Assembly: GCA_029641185.1 (NCBI GenBank)
Contig: JAPWGK010000027.1
Location: forward strand, 248,001 to 312,000
Length of the DNA stretch: 64,000 bases
Source of the DNA: Pseudofabraea citricarpa
Lineage: Eukaryota > Ascomycota > Leotiomycetes > Helotiales > Dermateaceae
Direction of reading: 5' to 3'
Below are positions 26,244-52,292 of this stretch, piece by piece. Below the pieces are notes generated by a model, which saw only the letters and a list, made by a program, of their open reading frames with translations, had not been told where the DNA came from and did not search any database. Both the position numbers and the translations under genes were made by a program. How positions within the stretch are numbered: the first letter of the stretch is position 1; the number at the start of each line of letters is the position of its first letter.

Positions 26244-27720
26244 ATGGTTCAACTACCATCCCTTCTAGCAACTCTTACTCTCTTCGTCATCACTTCAGCC
26301 TTACCACTCACCGTCCTCTTTGGGGATGCCTCCTCAAACAACCTGACGATTTCCGAAGATGGTAAAAGTGTGTCTCTCAACGGGCAGCCGATCAGTCTAA
26401 GTAAAGATAAACAAAAAGGCCACGGCTCTCAAGCAGGCACAAAACCTGCACCGGATGCTAAAGCTATCTACTTCATTACCAACACAGCCGAGAATTTCAT
26501 CGTGGCTTTAAAGGTTTCAAACGATGGTTCACTGTCCGATGGATCAATTACACCCACTGGAGGAGCGGGGATGAGCGGAGTTGATTCGAAGGGTGTTCCT
26601 GCTGCTCCGGATGCGCTTTTCAGTCAAGGAGCTGTGAAGGTATCCGGGAACGTAAGTCAACCTTCCCTCCTTGGTCAACAGAGTGAGAGAGAACTGACGC
26701 ACGAACAGCACATCCTCGCCGTGAATCCAGGATCGAACACAATCTCTTTATTCTCAATCGACTCCCTCGATGCTACAAGACTAACCATGCTCGGTCAACC
26801 TGCCAACACACTCGGCGAATTCCCCACCAGCATCGCAGCCTCCTCCAAATTAAACATGGCATGTGTTGCAAATACCGGTGCAAAGGCGGGCATTGCATGT
26901 TTCTCCATCTCAACCTCGACAGGTCTGGTACCGCTCGATACCGCACTCCGTCCTATCGAGCTGAATCAAAGCACGCCCCCAAAAGGGCCTACAAACACCA
27001 TCTCCCAGACCTTCTTCAACGCCGACTCGACCGCTCTACTAACGACAGTAAAAGGCGACCCGACCGTAAACAACACAGGATTCCTATCCGTCTTCCCAGT
27101 GACCAACGGATCCGTGTCGACTCAAGACGTGCGCTCCTCTCCCGCCGGCACGGCCGTCCTATTCGGGACGGCATTACTGCCTGCCTCCAACGAGCTATTC
27201 GTCACCGACGCCACTTTCGGCTCTGCGACGCTGTCTCTGTCGCCAGACAATCGAGCCGCTGTGTCTGCGAAGACCGACATCCTGGGCCAGGCTGCGACGT
27301 GCTGGGCGGCCTTCTCGGATACTACGGGCACGGCATTCGTCACTGACGTCGCTGTCAATCACCTCGTCGAGGTCGATCCGAAGACGGGAGCCGTCGTCAG
27401 TTCTGTGAACTCGCCGAATGGCAATCCCGGCATGGTCGACCTCGTTGCTGCGGGCAGGTTCCTCTATGCGCTTAGTCCCGGCAACGCTACGACTCCGGCG
27501 GCTGTGGCGGTCTTTGATGTTGCTGGTGGACGCGGTGGTGAGTTTTCTGGCTTTCTTGGTCCCATTTCCGTCTTTTCATCTCTTGTTTCTCTCTTTGCTT
27601 GCCTGTTCTCCCCTCGGTGAAATATTTAAACTAACGTGATGCATAGCTGCGAAGGAGATCCAGAATTTTCACCCTACAGGCGTCTCAGCTAGTGCTCAGG
27701 GCATGGCGTTTTCGGTTTGA
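26244..27720 (+). CDS. Secreted beta-propeller protein (3-carboxymuconate cyclase/lactonase-like)
   Basis: Exons 26244-26651, 26709-27537 and 27647-27720 give 436 residues with the stop at 27720. A signal peptide is clear (MVQLPSLLATLTLFVITSALP). The mature part shows repeating propeller-style blades: AIYFITNTAENFIVALKVSN, HILAVNPGSNTISLFSI, FLSVFPVTNGS and VTDVAVNHLVEVDP. It fits the seven-bladed lactonase / 3-carboxy-cis,cis-muconate lactonising enzyme-like family. In fungal pathogens such as Sporothrix a surface glycoprotein (Gp70) belongs to this group. The protein has several N-glycosylation sequons. Intron 1 (57 bp) is in frame without a stop; its GTAAGT donor and CTGAC branch, and the join SGNHILAVNPGS, support splicing. 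Enzymatic activity is doubtful; an extracellular or wall role is likely. Confidence 0.82.
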
Positions 27721-28975
27721 TCAGAACGATGTTGTGGTTGGAGATGACTCGAAATCCGTACTTTGCTTCGGTTTTCGAAGATATAGAAACCGGAATCGTT
27801 GATGTGTAGAGAATTAATTTATCAGCGAGGCTTGACGTAGAATCGTCAACTTCTCGTATCCTTCCCTCACGAGTAAAATATAGAATTTAAACCATTAGTA
27901 GCCTTTATTGAATTCTCAATCGCCTTTTCTCTCACCGGGTGTTGAGAGTTCCCGACTATGCCTATCGTCGCTAAGCGGTGGTAATTAAGAGAGAGAAACT
28001 AAGGACCTTGTTGGCAAATATTACTTAACCGACTCCTAGCTTATTTTGTCTAGCCAATCAAACTCGGGGCCGAAAGAAGGATGAGATGCAAGCTCAAAGC
28101 TAAACAAGAGAAGAGACTTTCCTCCAAATCGGGGAGCACAAATCTGTACAGAGCTTGATCATCAACCTTTCTACCGTCTCAGTTTTGAGTTCTTACCGAT
28201 GCACACTAGCGGGTTAAGCATGCATGCTTTAATCATGTTTTACACTTTATAATCGAGATCTCTTTTGGTTGATGGTTTGTGATCTCGGAGTTTTCACCTT
28301 GTCAGTGCTTGTTCGGCATACTTGATCTCGCATGGTCAAGATATATTGGACTCTCAAAAGTGGGCTCGATTGCAGAATTCAGCAGATTTAAAAAGAGAGT
28401 ATTAACACAGCATAAAAGTGGGTTATGCATGTCGCTATTTCACTCAGTTTAAGTTTAAAAATATATTATCTCACAACTTGTAATCTATCAAGATTCAATC
28501 CGCTCCGAATCCGAAGCTCAGGCTTTTACATAACATAAATTCATAATGGCGTGAATTTTCGTGCCTTGAGGTGGTTGGGATTAACTCATCGGCTTCTTGC
28601 TAAGCTCTTGTCGTCTTTAAGCTAGAGATTTGTAGGGGCATGTTGACAGCTTAAGTTCACGACGCCTTTCTCGAATTGTATAAGCGAGTAAGTGCCAAGA
28701 TATATCGTTATGAACCATTCTTTCTGTTATTTTTGGCCATCAGAAAAAGACGTGACGACTAACAAATGGTAATTGTAACAGTTCAGGAGCCAAAAAAGCA
28801 AGAGTGAGGCTTAAGCAGATTAAGATCTGAGAGTCTGAAAATCCCATCTTAGTGGCTCTTACATTTCCTACATGTAGATTTGCTTCAGTCCCTTCTTTGT
28901 TTCTTCTCAGATTCCTTCTTCATCCTCACATTCGTTTTCACGTCCACAAACCCTTGACTCCCAGAGCCTCTCAAT
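27721..28975. other. Intergenic; no supported gene
   Basis: AT-rich spacer of about 1.25 kb with no long frame. The last 120 bases are a C/T-rich leader before the hydrophobin-type gene. Confidence 0.5.
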
Positions 28976-30410
28976 ATGAAGCTCTTAACATCTATATTCT
29001 TTGCGCTTGGTGCTTTTGTTATTTCTGTGACAGGACAGATCAATCTTCCCCTGACAACATCAACCAGCACCACCACCACCAGCAGCACTTCTACTTCCAG
29101 AACATCAACATCAACTTCGTCCTCAAGTAGTACTTCATCTCCTACGACCACCTCTCCAACATCTTCCGGGACCACGACTTCTACGACCTCAAGTACCTCA
29201 ACTACCACCAGCAGTTCAATCACGACTACAACTACTTCACCTACATCCACTTCTGGAACAACCACCTCGTCAACTTCCAGTTCATCACCAACAACCTCTT
29301 CTACAAGTTCATCAAGTTCTTCTAGTGCAAGCTCCTCAACCTCCAGCTCGGGTTTGATCAACGGAATAGGGGGAGGGTTGCAGGCAACTTCCACAACAAG
29401 TACTTCGTCAAGTACTTCTCTTTCAACCACGTCGTCCACTACATTAAGTACGACTACCACAACTACATCTACTTCTGGAACAACATCCTCGACTGTAACT
29501 ACTACAACAAGCTCGTCTTCTACAAGCTCATCTACGACCAGTTCATCCTCAAGCAGCTCAAGCTCAGCTACTTCATCCGCCTCTCCCAGTACAACTTCCT
29601 CTTCAACAAGTTCGTCGACAAGCCCTTCAACGAGTGCCCCGACAAGTTCATCGACGAGTTCATCAACAAGCCCCAGCAGCACCAGCTCTTCCACAACCAG
29701 CTCGGGTCTACTCAATGGAATAGGTGGAGGTTTACAGGCCACTTCCACAACAAGCACTTCTTCGACCACCACATCAAGTTCTACCAGTACCACATCCTCA
29801 TCCTCATCCTCATCAACCTCAAGCTCAGTACTCGGTCTGATCGGCGCCACCATAACCACATCATCCAACCAAGGAAATGTCGGAGTGACCGCATCGCCAG
29901 CAAGCGGCGCTGCTCGAGGGGGTGCGCAAACGACTGCAACAGGAACAACGCCATCCGTCCAAGGCGGAGCTCAGGCGACGGCAACTGGAACGAACGCCGG
30001 TGCACAAGCGACTGTTGGAGCCGGCGCCGGCCCCGTAGATGCATCGGCCTGTGTTGGCGTCAACGGTGGTGCAAGCTGTACAAGTTCGAGCACGACATCG
30101 AGCCCAACCAGTAGCCATACTGCCACGTCCACGGGACCTATCTGCCCTGATCCAACGTATTATACGAAGCCCTTCTGCTGTATTGAGTATGTGCATCGCG
30201 CTTTGCATCTTGATTGTAGACCAGGCAGTCGGAAGTATGTGAACCGAACAGGATTCCGCCAGGTGTGTCATGATGATCGGCGGGCTCCTTTGTGTTGCAA
30301 GATCCCCATTGTAAGTTCTTCTTTTCTTTCCCTGGTAGTTCCCTCGGATTTTGACTGACCTTTCTTTCTTCCGTTAGGCTGGTGGTGGATTCCAATGCCA
30401 AGGCGTTTGA
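28976..30410 (+). CDS. Ser/Thr-rich mucin-like protein with C-terminal class II hydrophobin domain
   Basis: Exons 28976-30310 and 30378-30410 give 455 residues. A signal peptide (MKLLTSIFFALGAFVISVTG) is followed by about 360 residues that are mostly Ser and Thr. This part contains two copies of a GL(I/L)NGIGGGLQATSTTSTSS motif (residues about 125 and 243), then a Gly/Ala/Thr segment. The C-terminus carries eight cysteines at 390, 401, 402, 414, 431, 440, 441 and 452: C-x10-CC-x11-C-x16-C-x8-CC-x10-C. That is the class II hydrophobin spacing, and LDC, the PLCCKIPI-like segment and the final CQGV also fit. Splicing of the 67-bp intron is needed to gain the eighth Cys. Hydrophobins coat hyphae at interfaces; the O-glycosylated stalk may anchor or extend it. 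Ordinary class II members have only about 100 residues. Confidence 0.85.
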
Positions 30411-32441: not shown

Positions 32442-39712
<7,271 letters not shown>

Positions 39713-48341: not shown

Positions 48342-49254
48342 TCATCGACGAGCTTTCTTATTAGGATTCTCTGCTTGACCCTCGGTCTCAACGAGAGTGG
48401 TCCCAGACTCGCCAGCATGTTTGCAAGGGGTTTTGTGCCAGTGGAAATCACACGGTGGTAAAGTCTTTAGATCGACAAGGTCTCGAGACTTTCGAGTCAA
48501 GGTTAAGAAATCCAAGAGAAGTGTGTCGTGTTTCTTGAACAGTTCGTACACTTTATCGGTAGGCCATTTTGACTCATATAGCCCAGATAGAATGATGTAA
48601 TGGGCGAAGTGAGTGAAATGCTTCCTCAGAGGTGAGGTTGTTAGAGTAGTATCAAAGACGAAGTCCATCGAATCAATTGCCAAAGACCTCTTTCTATCAT
48701 TGTGGCACTCCAGCAACAAGTCCATGATACCATCCATAAGCTCGTAGAGGAGGAACTTCTCAGCAAGACAGTAGAATAAGACCCCGCACCATGTTCTTGA
48801 GCGCACACCGGTTGGGCCCTTCATGACATGTAGTGGTTTGATAGCACTAGAGTATACCCATCCGAGCAGCAGGTCGAATGCGCGTGGATCATCTTCGGGG
48901 AAGGTTGCTCGCAACTCGGTAGTTTCTTTGAAGTTGCCGTTAAACATCTTGTCGAAGTATTCGATCTTGTTACAGAGTATCTTCTTGTGAACCCTAAAGA
49001 GCTGTTCATCCGGACCAACGTATAGATCTACCATTTCGATTCCCATAGATCTAGGAGGTATGTCAGTGAGTGCTCTTGCAGATGCGGCAATAGCAGTTAA
49101 TTTACTCGAGGAATGATGATCCTGCATCCTCTACATCGGTACCAACGTCAATGCTGCGCTTGCGTTTCTGTGGAGGTCGCTGTTCAACTTCCTTTGAGCC
49201 TTGTATCTCTGTGACAGGCTGCTCCGGAGAGGCTTGACGCTCAGGTGTAGACAT
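48342..49254 (-). CDS. BTB/POZ-domain protein, paralogue 1
   Basis: Exons 49254-49106 and 49050-48342 in coding order give 285 residues. A polar N-terminus with a basic patch (QKRKRS, possibly a nuclear signal) ends in SSFLE at the intron. The BTB core follows: MVDLYVGPDEQLFRVHKKIL, CNKIEYFDKMFNG, FPEDDPRAFDLLLGWVY. A helical region completes the protein, and the tail is basic (NPNKKARR). BTB domains dimerise and often act as Cullin-3 adaptors or in transcription. The 55-bp intron is in phase 2 just before the BTB domain. An unspliced reading begins with an ATG inside the exon-intron area (49127) and should not be used. Two relatives lie next to it on the other strand. Confidence 0.88.
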
Positions 49255-50178
49255 GGCTATTGATGGATGCCGCGATTATGGGCCCGTGGAAACTGATTCT
49301 TGTGGAGAAAAATGGAAGGTGATTACTTTGACGTGCGTGTCGTGATCGATAGCAGCAGCTACAGAGTTAGGCGCGTAATCAGACAAGATATAGCCTATAA
49401 AGCAGACTCTCGTCGTCTTGTCACGCAGTTGGTGAGAGTTTCGTAGTGAGGGACGCGTTCTGTGGTAGAGGCTTAGGTACTTAGACCGCCTTAAGTTTCT
49501 GCCGGTGCAAAGGGTTACTTTGGGATTGGTGCAAATGAGGCGGTGTAAACCTAAAGTGCGTGCAGAACTTCCACGTGATCATACAAGTCAGCATTCAACC
49601 ACTGCATTCAACTCATATTAATCACCCATTTCCATCTCTCTCCCGCATGAACTATTCCGCGAAGAAACAAAGATAAATTAATACGTGATAACGATAGAAG
49701 ATAAACTGACCACAGGCCACAGGAAGCAGGTTGGCAACAGCATGAAAATTACTGCTAATTCCACCTAGGGGTAAGCAGATTTCCTCGCAAAACGTCGTGT
49801 AGAGTATCCTTCCTTCTTTCCGGAAAACAAGAAAGGCACACGACGGTAGCTCCTTGATGAGCGCAGATACGTAAACGTTGATTTACACCTACATCTTCGG
49901 CGGCGGTTGATAGATATCCCGCTGTGGAGAGCTGAGGGCCCTTTGAATAGTTGAGTCTCCCTTACACCCCTTGCACCCCTTAGCACTACCGTAGACTAAC
50001 AGACCAACAGTCCGGCAAACATATGCTCAGTATAGTATTCTGGTTGGACACTATTGTACAAAAGTTCTCTAGCAATAAGTCGCAACTGTTCTGGTTCTCA
50101 TAGCTTCACCAGCCTTTATTCCTTGATAATATATTAAGGAGCCAACTCATTACTTCATCATCTCCCGGCACAGCTGCA
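49255..50178. other. Divergent intergenic region between BTB paralogues 1 and 2
   Basis: About 0.9 kb, shared promoter space for the divergent BTB genes. No long credible frame. Confidence 0.45.
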
Positions 50179-51011
50179 ATGTCTACAAATGCCCTTGAGA
50201 GTTCAACAGCTTTGGAACGGAAACATTCGAGGGATGAAGGTGATGTTGAAGTAACTGCTGGTCGTTCTTTGAAGGCAGCCCGTCATAGCTCATCATTTCT
50301 TGAGTAGGTCGTTCACAACTGTACTTCAATGACAGGAATTGACCGCATGCTAGATTTACCGGCACCGAGACTGTGGATCTCTATGTTGGCTTTGAGAAGA
50401 AGCTTTTTCGAGTCCATAAACAGGTCATTTGCCAGAAAATCTCATACTTTGACTCAATATTCAATGATGAATCTGGAAAGCCAAGACAAACGACCGCTGA
50501 ATTTCCAGAAGATTCTCCCATTGCCTTTGATGTACTTCTTGAATGGGCATATCACGGGCACCTGCGAACTCTGACATCCGCGGACAACCCATCAAAGTCG
50601 AGATACGACGCTTGTGCAGCGTACTTTCTTTTCGAGAAACTCGGCCTTCCGAAGCTCATGAATCTGTTGATGGGCATGATACGTGACTATCAAAGAAAGC
50701 ACAATAGATTCTTCTCGCCTCATACCATCCGTAAGGTCTATCAAAACACTCGAGTGCACTCGCCTTTGCGGAAATATTGTCTTCACACGCTGCACTATGT
50801 GATAGAGAGAAACCCAACTCCACATATAAGTGGCGGGTTTACTTCTACAGCGTTGCTGGCATTATTACAGGAAAATCCCGATTTGCTGAATGACCATATC
50901 ACTCTCATGCTTCAACAACATGGGGTGCATGTTGAAAATCCCAATTTGACACCAGACTCTCAATATCATGCCGAAGTATCAAGAATGAATTCGTTTCTAA
51001 AAACCAAGTAA
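50179..51011 (+). CDS. BTB/POZ-domain protein, paralogue 2
   Basis: Exons 50179-50303 and 50354-51011 give 260 residues. The N-terminus (MSTNALESSTALERKHSRDE) runs to SSFLE at the intron, exactly as in paralogue 1. The BTB core reads TVDLYVGFEKKLFRVHKQVI, CQKISYFDSIFND, FPEDSPIAFDVLLEWAY, followed by an alpha-helical region with the conserved VHSPLRKYCLHTLHYVI. The intron is 50 bp, phase 2. The shared intron and SSFLE end show that the gene arose by duplication with its neighbours. Function unknown; possible Cullin-3 adaptor or regulatory protein. Confidence 0.88.
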
Positions 51012-51449
51012 GACGGGAAGCTGGCAGTGTGGTGATGGGTTAGAAAATCTTCGAAACGAACAGTCTGGATGACTTAAACGCTTTTGGAGTTCTTTGGTAT
51101 GTTTTTGAGCCAGAAACTTGCCAGCGCCGTGGACTGAATTCTTATATGCAATAAATTATACTTAGGACAATGAAACAGACGTACAATACCATTAGCTTCC
51201 CTTCTTGTTTTCGTCCCCTTCAAGGACGTGTCGGGTCACGTGTTCGCGCGTCATTCCACGTAAAGCTTAACCCGGAGCTTCATCCTCAAACTTACCTCCA
51301 TGTCACAGCAACGCAGAAAGGCCACCATTATTGATCTATGTGCGTACGAGCTTGTCTACACAAAGCCATATTCCCTCTTCGGCCAATTGGACTTCTCTTC
51401 ACCCTCACAATCAGTCGCGTGAATCCGCATCGCCCTTCACATAGCAATC
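51012..51449. other. Intergenic between BTB paralogues 2 and 3
   Basis: Contains the 3' end of paralogue 2 and the promoter of paralogue 3; nothing else seen. Confidence 0.4.
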
Positions 51450-52292
51450 ATGACAATTTCGACCCAACCTCCAAAACGGAAGCAGGATTCCACAAAAACT
51501 ACCAGTCTCATCTCCAGCAAGAAAGCTCGCGTCAGGAAGACAGCAGAACACGAATCCAAAGAAAGTGCTTTACCATTCTTAAAGTCAGTACCCCAATCGC
51601 CATCTGCCAGCAAGCTCACCACTCACAAATGTACTGCAAGGTCAATGGGTACCAACATGGTTGAACTCTACGTTGGTCCTGAAAAGCAGCTATTCCGAAT
51701 CCACAAGGACGCTTTATGCCGTAAAGTCAAGTTCTTTGATAAGATCTTCAACGAGCCGTTGCGCGACGTCGCGAGAAACTCGGCCGAGTTCCCTGACGAT
51801 GACCCAGCAACATTCGATGTTCTTTTGGAATGGGTGCACACGGGAAAGCTTCGGAGGATCACATCGGAGGAGAAGGACACACAAAATTGGGATCCATACC
51901 TGTTATACTTTCTGTGCGAAAGACTTTGCTTCACTAAGCTCATGGATCAGACAATGGATATTATAAGAGCTGCCGATGCGGAGAGGGATTACCTTCCCGG
52001 TCCAGTTGCTGTCCATCTAGTGTACAGCAATACTACGTGTGCATGCTCTCTGAGAAGGTATGTCGCAAGCGCGTTTCAGTTTGGGATTATGGAAGATCAC
52101 TTCCCAGACAGACGGCTTCCAAAGTCAGCAGTGCAGAAAGCTTTCAGAGACCACGGAGAATTTGCCAGCGATTTTGTCAATTTGCTTAGGGCTGATGCCT
52201 ATTTACCGGACCCGAGGACTGCGTCAAACTGTGAATTTCACGTTCATGAAAGGGATGAACCTTGTCCCCAGGGAGAATCGGATATCTACTAG
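51450..52292 (+). CDS. BTB/POZ-domain protein, paralogue 3
   Basis: Exons 51450-51583 and 51641-52292 give 261 residues. A Lys-rich N-terminus (PPKRKQDS...SSKKARVRK) could be a nuclear signal. The BTB core reads MVELYVGPEKQLFRIHKDAL, CRKVKFFDKIFNE, FPDDDPATFDVLLEWVH. The 57-bp intron is a multiple of three without a stop, so the frame reads through it and adds 19 residues. A GTCAGT donor, its place just before SMGTNMVELYVG, and the same phase-2 position as in paralogues 1 and 2 argue that it is spliced. The C-terminal CEFHVHERDEPC parallels CDFHWHKTPC of paralogue 1. Confidence 0.87.
   Translation: MTISTQPPKRKQDSTKTTSLISSKKARVRKTAEHESKESALPFLKSVPQSPSASKLTTHKCTARSMGTNMVELYVGPEKQLFRIHKDALCRKVKFFDKIFNEPLRDVARNSAEFPDDDPATFDVLLEWVHTGKLRRITSEEKDTQNWDPYLLYFLCERLCFTKLMDQTMDIIRAADAERDYLPGPVAVHLVYSNTTCACSLRRYVASAFQFGIMEDHFPDRRLPKSAVQKAFRDHGEFASDFVNLLRADAYLPDPRTASNCEFHVHERDEPCPQGESDIY

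What the first reader, a model, noticed from the sequence alone, without database searches (positions are those of the whole stretch)
28976..30410. Class II hydrophobin domain at the end of a 360-residue mucin-like stalk
The eight cysteines have exact class II hydrophobin spacing (C-x10-CC-x11-C-x16-C-x8-CC-x10-C), but the domain follows a long Ser/Thr-rich region with two copies of a GL(I/L)NGIGGGLQATS motif. Typical class II hydrophobins are about 100 residues. This could be a wall-tethered or extended surface-active protein. The last Cys lies in a 33-nt terminal exon that is easy to miss, so automatic annotation may label the gene only as Ser/Thr-rich.
Basis: partly seen in the sequence, partly recalled or inferred. 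Interest (0 to 1): 0.78.

Follow-up and report, generated by a model that had tools for sequence, protein, structure and literature searches.

The report
Hydrophilic hydrophobin-like domain on stalk
A fungal gene encodes an apparently secreted protein with a long serine/threonine-rich stalk ending in a small disulphide-knotted domain of the hydrophobin family, but that domain has lost part of the oily surface that makes ordinary hydrophobins water-repellent, so it may bind or space things at the cell wall rather than form a water-repellent film.

Summary
Exon 1 28976-30310, a 67-nt intron 30311-30377 and a 33-nt exon 30378-30410 encode 455 residues. Residues 390-453 match Pfam Hydrophobin_2 (E 1.2e-11; domain alone 8.7e-13) with exact C-x10-CC-x11-C-x16-C-x8-CC-x10-C spacing. 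The intron has a GTAAGT donor and an ACTGAC branch site and lies at the same place and phase as the last intron of the canonical class II hydrophobin elsewhere in this 44 Mb fungal genome.

'Surface-active' is doubtful. The C1-C8 core has GRAVY -0.46, net charge +5 and 10 Lys/Arg; the 120 listed relatives (best of 763) range 0.11 to 0.78, -8 to +2 and 0 to 6. Of 12 near-invariant hydrophobic columns, chosen from 118 of those relatives, three are His, Lys and Gln here.

Tailed class II hydrophobins are known (QID3, HFB6, Vdh5), with Gly/Asn- or Pro/Asp-rich tails; I saw none with a Ser/Thr stalk like this. Best reading: a secreted, O-glycosylated hydrophobin-fold wall or matrix protein, a new variant of a known kind. 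Secretion, glycosylation and role are inferred; there is no transcript or biochemical evidence here.

The parts
28976..29035 (+). Likely signal peptide, residues 1-20 (cut inferred after VTG)
   Evidence: Read by eye from the translation; no signal-peptide program was available
28976..30310 (+). Exon 1 of the 455-residue protein (445 codons)
   Evidence: Open frame without stop; splice enumeration
29054..29875 (+). Ser/Thr-rich stalk, residues 27-300, 219 of 274 residues S or T
   Evidence: Composition
29351..29392 (+). Hydrophobic motif copy 1, GLINGIGGGLQATS, residues 126-139
   Evidence: over 22 codons around the motif (block chosen after seeing the codon table), about 10 synonymous and 1 nonsynonymous differences from copy 2
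29705..29746 (+). Hydrophobic motif copy 2, GLLNGIGGGLQATS, residues 244-257
29825..29866 (+). Degenerate third hydrophobic motif (SVLGLIGATITTSS), residues 284-297
   Evidence: Same i, i+3, i+7 spacing of hydrophobic residues by eye from the positions; sequences side by side
29876..30049 (+). Gly/Ala/Thr-rich segment with three GAQ(A/T)T sequences, residues 301-358
   Evidence: Composition (for 301-360) and Gln contexts
30050..30079 (+). Extra cysteine pair Cys359...Cys368 (CVGVNGGASC)
   Evidence: Cys positions; a disulphide between them is inferred
30143..30310 (+). Class II hydrophobin domain, exon 1 part, residues 390-445 (7 of 8 Cys)
   Evidence: PF06766; HFBI; model of 30128-30310 resembles HFBI, HFBII and NC2
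30311..30377 (+). Intron, 67 nt, phase 0 (GTAAGT...ACTGAC...TTAG; branch site 30354-30359)
   Evidence: same position and phase as the last intron of the paralogue on C13
30378..30410 (+). Exon 2, 33 nt: AGGGFQCQGV and stop; holds Cys452
   Evidence: the spliced domain scores 48.5 bits against 42.5 for the retained-intron reading

Best explanation
The gene encodes a secreted protein whose long N-terminal Ser/Thr region is probably heavily O-mannosylated and stiff, carrying at its C-terminal tip a class II hydrophobin-fold (PF06766) domain. In HFBI the N terminus lies on the hydrophilic side, so a stalk there would leave the other face free. Because part of the aliphatic patch is replaced by His, Lys and Gln and the core is cationic, I think it does not build a water-repellent film by itself. 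It more likely works as a tailed wall or matrix protein whose disulphide-knotted head binds anionic or mixed surfaces or neighbouring hydrophobins, while the glycosylated stalk acts as spacer and wall-retained brush; the small amphipathic motifs in the stalk may add lateral contacts. Shown: gene structure (without transcripts), domain membership, composition, lost hydrophobic positions, paralogue. Inferred: secretion, O-glycosylation, wall retention, the binding role.
For: Domain: Pfam 1.2e-11 and 8.7e-13, HFBI 1.2e-10. Intron position shared with the paralogue. Core GRAVY -0.46, net charge +5, K+R 10; the 120 relatives measured have 0.11 to 0.78, -8 to +2 and 0 to 6. Polar residues at 3 of 12 near-invariant hydrophobic columns, none in any of 118 relatives (columns were chosen from these same 118), while the genome's C13 paralogue, not among them, keeps 12 of 12. 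A survey puts most class II sequences at pI 4-6 and GRAVY 0-1, computed on whole sequences (PMC12375992, passages); core pI here is 8.9. Being more hydrophilic was the reason given to doubt five B. cinerea hydrophobin-like proteins as hydrophobins (PMC3032640, passages). The HFBI N terminus is on the hydrophilic side (PMC8164047, passages). Stalk motif kept at protein level despite synonymous divergence: pS 0.54, pN 0.021 over 22 codons.
Against: Nine of the 12 hydrophobic columns are still hydrophobic, so a smaller patch may remain and the protein may be surface-active. The relatives compared are the 120 best of 763 hits to a profile of five class II sequences, four of them canonical, so they lean to canonical ones; the known tailed proteins (HCf-6, Vdh5, QID3) were not compared. 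No transcript, glycosylation, localisation or binding evidence. A cationic head is compatible with several ligands.
Confidence: 0.5

Rival explanations
1. A working, film-forming class II hydrophobin with an unusual Ser/Thr-rich tail: the head inserts at the air-water or wall interface and the glycosylated tail forms a hydrophilic brush.
For: Full Cys framework and 9 of 12 hydrophobic columns kept; 39 percent identity to HFBI in the alignment; the 2025 survey takes tailed hydrophobins to be probably fully functional (PMC12375992, passages).
Against: GRAVY -0.46 and net charge +5, outside the 120 relatives measured; in the C7-C8 loop the Leu present in 118 of 118 is Gln here, and a position with Val in 108 of 118 is Lys.
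Confidence: 0.27
2. A decaying former hydrophobin: the head is under relaxed selection and the gene has little function.
For: Residues seen in 118 of 118 relatives are lost (one Pro, one Gly and one Gln are Gly, Arg and Gly here); no close relative found.
Against: Frame, all eight Cys and splice sites are intact and most core hydrophobic residues are kept; the stalk motif copies suggest purifying selection. No orthologue was found with which to measure selection on the head.
Confidence: 0.13
3. A PIR-like wall protein covalently ester-linked to beta-1,3-glucan through the glutamines of its GGLQATS and GAQ(A/T)T sequences, with the hydrophobin domain as cargo.
For: Five G-x-Q-[AT]-T sites loosely resemble the end of the PIR repeat; the genome has a true PIR protein with DGQIQAPT repeats.
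Against: No PF00399 match at E up to 1. The ester-forming Gln is the first Q of DGQ[IV]Q (PMC8975586, passages); in an ungapped reading by eye that position is Gly here and there is no Asp.
Confidence: 0.06
4. Gene-model artefact: a Ser/Thr-rich protein joined wrongly to a separate short hydrophobin gene.
For: Tailed hydrophobins can be mis-annotated; an unpredicted intron had to be corrected by cDNA in V. dahliae VDH5 (PMC9783231, passages).
Against: Stalk and 7 of 8 core Cys lie in one uninterrupted frame of 1335 nt; I see no signal-peptide-like stretch just before the head.
Confidence: 0.04

Closest known systems
Extended-N-terminus class II hydrophobins: Trichoderma QID3, HFB6, HA_2c, HV_21a; Cladosporium fulvum HCf-6; Verticillium dahliae Vdh5 (PMC2253510, PMC9783231, PMC12375992; passages)
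   Same: Long low-complexity N-terminal part and a single C-terminal class II domain; tails poorly conserved between proteins; an intron missed by annotation in Vdh5
   Different: Their tails are Gly/Asn-rich or Pro/Asp-rich (64-133 residues in five Trichoderma proteins; Vdh5 is 250 residues in all); here about 369 residues, mostly Ser/Thr, with repeated hydrophobic motifs, two extra Cys and a hydrophilic basic head. QID3 lacks one of the eight Cys; this protein has all
Trichoderma reesei HFBI (2fz6) and HFBII (1r2m), Neurospora NC2 (4aog)
   Same: Eight-Cys framework and sequence match; model of the exon 1 part superposes
   Different: Canonical ones have an aliphatic patch; here three near-invariant hydrophobic columns are His, Lys, Gln, and the core is basic
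Canonical class II hydrophobin of the same genome (contig C13, near 270.8-271.2 kb, minus strand; 93 residues)
   Same: Same inner spacing 11-16-8-10 and same last intron position and phase
   Different: Two introns, no stalk, GRAVY +0.68, pI 4.1, 12 of 12 hydrophobic columns kept; 26 percent identity in the alignment
Hydrophilic hydrophobin-like proteins of Botrytis cinerea, e.g. BC1G_03277 (PMC3032640, passages)
   Same: Long N-terminal part before the Cys pattern (111 residues) and negative GRAVY (-0.43)
   Different: Different Cys spacing (7-10-17-8-12) and shorter (178 residues)

Membership tests
Class II hydrophobin domain family (PF06766) | Profile match above the curated cut-off | tested here: met
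   44.9 bits whole protein, 48.5 bits domain, cut-off 24; also found from DNA in the genome, 41.7 bits
Class II hydrophobin domain family (PF06766) | Eight Cys with class II spacing | tested here: met
   10-11-16-8-10; inner spacing as in 118 of 120 relatives
Class II hydrophobin domain family (PF06766) | Conserved last intron before the C8 strand (not strictly defining) | tested here: met
   Phase 0 after ...CCKIPI, as after ...CCILPI in the C13 gene; the C13 gene's first intron has no counterpart here
Class II hydrophobin domain family (PF06766) | Class II fold (beta barrel plus helix) | tested here: inconclusive
Functional (surface-active) class II hydrophobin | Hydrophobic core region with an aliphatic patch | tested here: not met
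   GRAVY -0.46 against 0.11 to 0.78 in the 120 measured; polar at 3 of 12 columns, hydrophobic at 9. Hence filed as a hydrophobin-fold protein, not as a proven hydrophobin
Functional (surface-active) class II hydrophobin | Lowers surface tension and forms films | not testable with these tools
   Needs purified protein
Extended-N-terminus class II hydrophobins | At least 70 residues before the first Cys | tested here: met
   358 residues before the first Cys, 389 before the first core Cys; threshold from PMC12375992
Extended-N-terminus class II hydrophobins | Gly/Asn-rich or Pro/Asp-rich tail (the two types described in Trichoderma) | tested here: not met
   Residues 21-300: S 0.45, T 0.33, G 0.06, P 0.03, 4 Asn
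PIR cell wall proteins (PF00399) | DGQ[IV]Q repeat | tested here: not met
   No PF00399 match at E up to 1; none of the Gln contexts listed is DGQ
GPI-anchored stalk adhesins | C-terminal hydrophobic GPI signal after the stalk | tested here: not met
   Protein ends ...GGGFQCQGV, three residues after Cys452, and the stalk is N-terminal (read by eye, no predictor run). Usual adhesin order, binding domain first, Ser/Thr repeats, GPI end: PMC9026816, passages
Polyhydrophobins (CFTH1, CPPH1) | Two or more hydrophobin domains | tested here: not met
   One PF06766 stretch

The most novel reading that the evidence does not exclude
The class II hydrophobin fold has here been re-used as a cationic binding head on a glycosylated stalk: an adhesin or matrix linker in which hydrophobin surfactancy was traded for a ligand site, with small amphipathic stalk motifs as lateral stickers.
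Probability: 0.3. Interest if true: 0.62.

Novelty: new variant of a known kind. Interest (0 to 1): 0.42.

Why it matters
Hydrophobins are known for surfactancy, and the role of their long tails is called poorly understood in a 2025 survey (PMC12375992, passages). A tailed member whose head kept the framework but lost part of the patch would separate the two: it allows a direct test of what the framework does without full surfactancy and of what a stalk does. It also warns that a 33-nt last exon decides whether such a gene is seen to have all eight Cys.

Tried and rejected
PIR repeat as the nature of the GL(I/L)NGIGGGLQATS motif: rejected as membership. Other copies of the motif in the genome: a 23-residue query returned only the two copies in this gene (only the best candidates are scored there). 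Other copies of the stalk-to-head segment: the gene itself and two weak matches, E 0.004 and 0.08, each with a stop inside; I read the frames of 60 residues or more around both and saw no hydrophobin pattern. Class I hydrophobins (PF01185): no match, but the control rang nowhere, so absence is not shown.

Close orthologues: residues 384-455 within the full protein gave 6 candidates, none with E at most 0.001; the 70-residue domain gave no candidate sharing three words (E up to 10). A profile of five class II domains gave 763 proteins at E at most 0.01 among 802 candidates, 120 listed, so the database holds class II hydrophobins; but length limits (0.55 to 1.75 times the query) kept long proteins out of that search, so how common long ones are was not measured. 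The species is not identified. Rfam: no match in the window at gathering scores. Bacterial promoter scan is not meaningful for a fungus. Tandem repeats in the stalk: 7 rows, best score 76. Single-sequence structure model: low confidence, four strands, not used.

PDB by sequence: engineered TPR chains stood second and third (E 2.4e-7 and 7.4e-7, sums of repeats, no stretch passing by itself), above HFBII (9.6e-5) and NC2 (0.0024); I take them as chance. With a three-sequence profile only the four hydrophobin sequences remained at E at most 0.01.

Literature: searches for tailed, Ser/Thr-rich or mucin-like hydrophobins listed 20 of 25, 25 of 219, 25 of 386, 12 of 55, 8 of 12 and 2 of 2 papers; in the titles and abstract openings listed, and in the passages read, I saw no Ser/Thr-stalked class II hydrophobin. 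The supplements of PMC12375992, which should name its 60 tailed class II proteins, were not available to me, so an example may be there.

Statistical cautions: the 22-codon block of the motif comparison and the 12 hydrophobic columns were chosen after seeing the data, the columns from the same 118 relatives. A synonymous excess also appears in the upstream flank (pS 0.85, pN 0.39, significant) and not in the downstream one (pS 0.77, pN 0.66, p 0.22); low pN (0.02) sets the motif apart. Flanks are low-complexity and their register is uncertain. The clustering test treats the two near-identical motif copies as independent, which inflates it. An earlier count said 11 synonymous changes; one search gives 10.

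Full report
Gene and observation. The + strand frame from ATG 28976 is open to 30358. Of 18 GT...AG pairs tried near its end, only 30311-30377 (67 nt, GTAAGT donor, TTAG end) gives ...CCKIPI-AGGGFQCQGV with the eighth Cys at the class II distance; the intron holds a fungal-type branch site ACTGAC at 30354-30359 (the consensus RCTRAC is recalled). The spliced protein has 455 residues, the last exon being 33 nt with the stop. Cys spacing is 10-11-16-8-10. The finding's coordinates, motif copies and spacing are therefore right.

Is it a hydrophobin domain? Pfam Hydrophobin_2 matches residues 390-453 with E 1.2e-11, the domain alone with 8.7e-13, and the retained-intron reading with 6.2e-11 (48.5 against 42.5 bits), so the spliced exon improves the match. 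The best solved relative is HFBI (E 1.2e-10); HFBII (9.6e-5) and NC2 (0.0024) follow, below two engineered TPR chains whose E-values (2.4e-7, 7.4e-7) are sums over repeats with no stretch passing alone, and a coronavirus spike chain stands at E 0.46; I take these as chance. A three-sequence profile retrieved only HFBI, HFBII, NC2 and the NC2 chimera at E at most 0.01. The genome, 44 Mb in 43 contigs, gave matches at two PF06766 loci: this gene and one on contig C13. Within the intron lengths I allowed, the C13 gene has two eight-Cys splice solutions, with introns of 53 and 59 (or 65) nt, the last in phase 0 right after ...CCILPI, the same place as here. Trichoderma class II genes are reported to have two positionally conserved introns (PMC2253510, passages); the window gene has only one. 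No transcripts were available.

The head is unlike its relatives in chemistry. Of 763 class II proteins at E at most 0.01, the best 120 were listed and all 120 listed were measured: GRAVY of C1-C8 0.11 to 0.78 (median 0.46), net charge -8 to +2, Lys+Arg 0 to 6. The window head has -0.46, +5 and 10; none of the 120 is as extreme on any of the three. The C3-C4 and C7-C8 loops are both less hydrophobic than in any of the 120. The genome's own C13 hydrophobin has +0.68 and pI 4.1. Twelve columns are hydrophobic in at least 98 percent of the 118 relatives with the same inner spacing; here three of them are polar (Leu to His, Val to Lys, Leu to Gln), while none of the 118, from which the columns were chosen, has a polar residue there; the C13 protein, not among them, keeps all twelve. 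Nine of twelve are still hydrophobic here. A survey puts most class II sequences at pI 4-6 and GRAVY 0-1, computed on whole sequences (PMC12375992), and the aliphatic patch is proposed to give class II proteins their surface activity (PMC5445765, passages). So the protein belongs to the class II domain family by framework, but a functional hallmark was tested and not met. Caveat: the 120 are the best-scoring ones, hence canonical; weaker hits were not listed and may include hydrophilic ones.

The stalk. Residues 27-300 are 219 of 274 Ser/Thr. The 17 hydrophobic residues (L, I, V, F, M) in it are clustered: 23 pairs within 8 residues against a shuffle mean of 7.9, with 1 of 10000 shuffles as high, a figure inflated by the duplication itself. 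They form two near-identical motifs and a weaker third. The motif copies differ by about 10 synonymous and 1 conservative nonsynonymous change over 22 codons (block chosen after seeing the table), which suggests that the peptide is kept by selection. Their helical hydrophobic moment is high for their composition (0.7 and 0.4 percent of shuffles as high for the two copies, 7.8 percent for the third). O-mannosylation and a brush-like form are inferred from composition only. Residues 301-358 carry three GAQ(A/T)T sequences; residues 359 and 368 are extra cysteines.

How it probably works. With an N-terminal stalk, the head's hydrophilic side would face the stalk, since the HFBI N terminus is on that side (PMC8164047, passages). 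A head with a reduced patch and many basic residues at the tip of a glycosylated spacer is most simply a wall- or matrix-held binding module. The nearest functional precedent is HCf-6 of C. fulvum, credited with a role in adhesion by the title of Lacroix 2008 (seen only as a reference in PMC3510045; that genome paper found no HCf-6 expression in its EST data). Vdh5 of V. dahliae, a 250-residue tailed class II protein, is reported to matter late in infection (PMC9783231, passages). Neither establishes the mechanism here. No tether was found: no PIR match (repeat definition in PMC8975586) and no GPI signal by eye.

Relation to known kinds and novelty. [quoted passage not shown] What appears new is the combination of a stalk of about 369 residues dominated by Ser/Thr, with repeated hydrophobic motifs, and a hydrophilic, cationic head. 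The listings, all but one cut short, did not show one, and the survey's supplements were not readable. No close relative was found in 5.8 billion proteins by shared words, a search that misses divergent ones. I rate it a new variant of a known kind, of moderate interest.

Noticed in passing
G000 contig C13, about 270.8-271.2 kb (L002): The genome's other PF06766 gene: a canonical 93-residue class II hydrophobin with an unusual C1-C2 spacing of 6, the same as Botrytis cinerea Bhp2 in PMC3032640.
   Followed up: partly
G000 contig C1, about 422.0-422.4 kb (L005): A true PIR protein with seven DGQ(I/P)Q repeats and a hydrophobic C-terminal end, so this fungus has PIR-type wall proteins.
   Followed up: partly
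G000 contig C39, about 1246.3-1246.5 kb (L015): A small Ser/Thr/Ala-rich frame with a signal-like start and a hydrophobic end, perhaps a GPI-type wall protein, weakly similar to the stalk-to-head segment (E 0.004; frame).
   Followed up: no
window 28885-29970, minus strand: A 361-codon stop-free frame opposite the stalk, rich in Val, Glu and Asp; most likely a shadow of the Ser/Thr codons and not a gene.
   Followed up: no
window 37454-39709, plus strand: Uninterrupted 752-residue peroxidase gene (PF00141, E 3e-69, two stretches), of catalase-peroxidase type by its length and two domains.
   Followed up: no
window 26244-27620, plus strand: Upstream neighbour: apparently secreted protein (458 residues in this reading, introns not sought) without a Pfam match at E 0.01; looks like a beta-propeller by eye (recalled).
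   Followed up: no
window 48342-52292: Three BTB/POZ-like frames in a row, one on minus and two on plus; one confirmed by Pfam, the other two by similar sequence, by eye.
   Followed up: no
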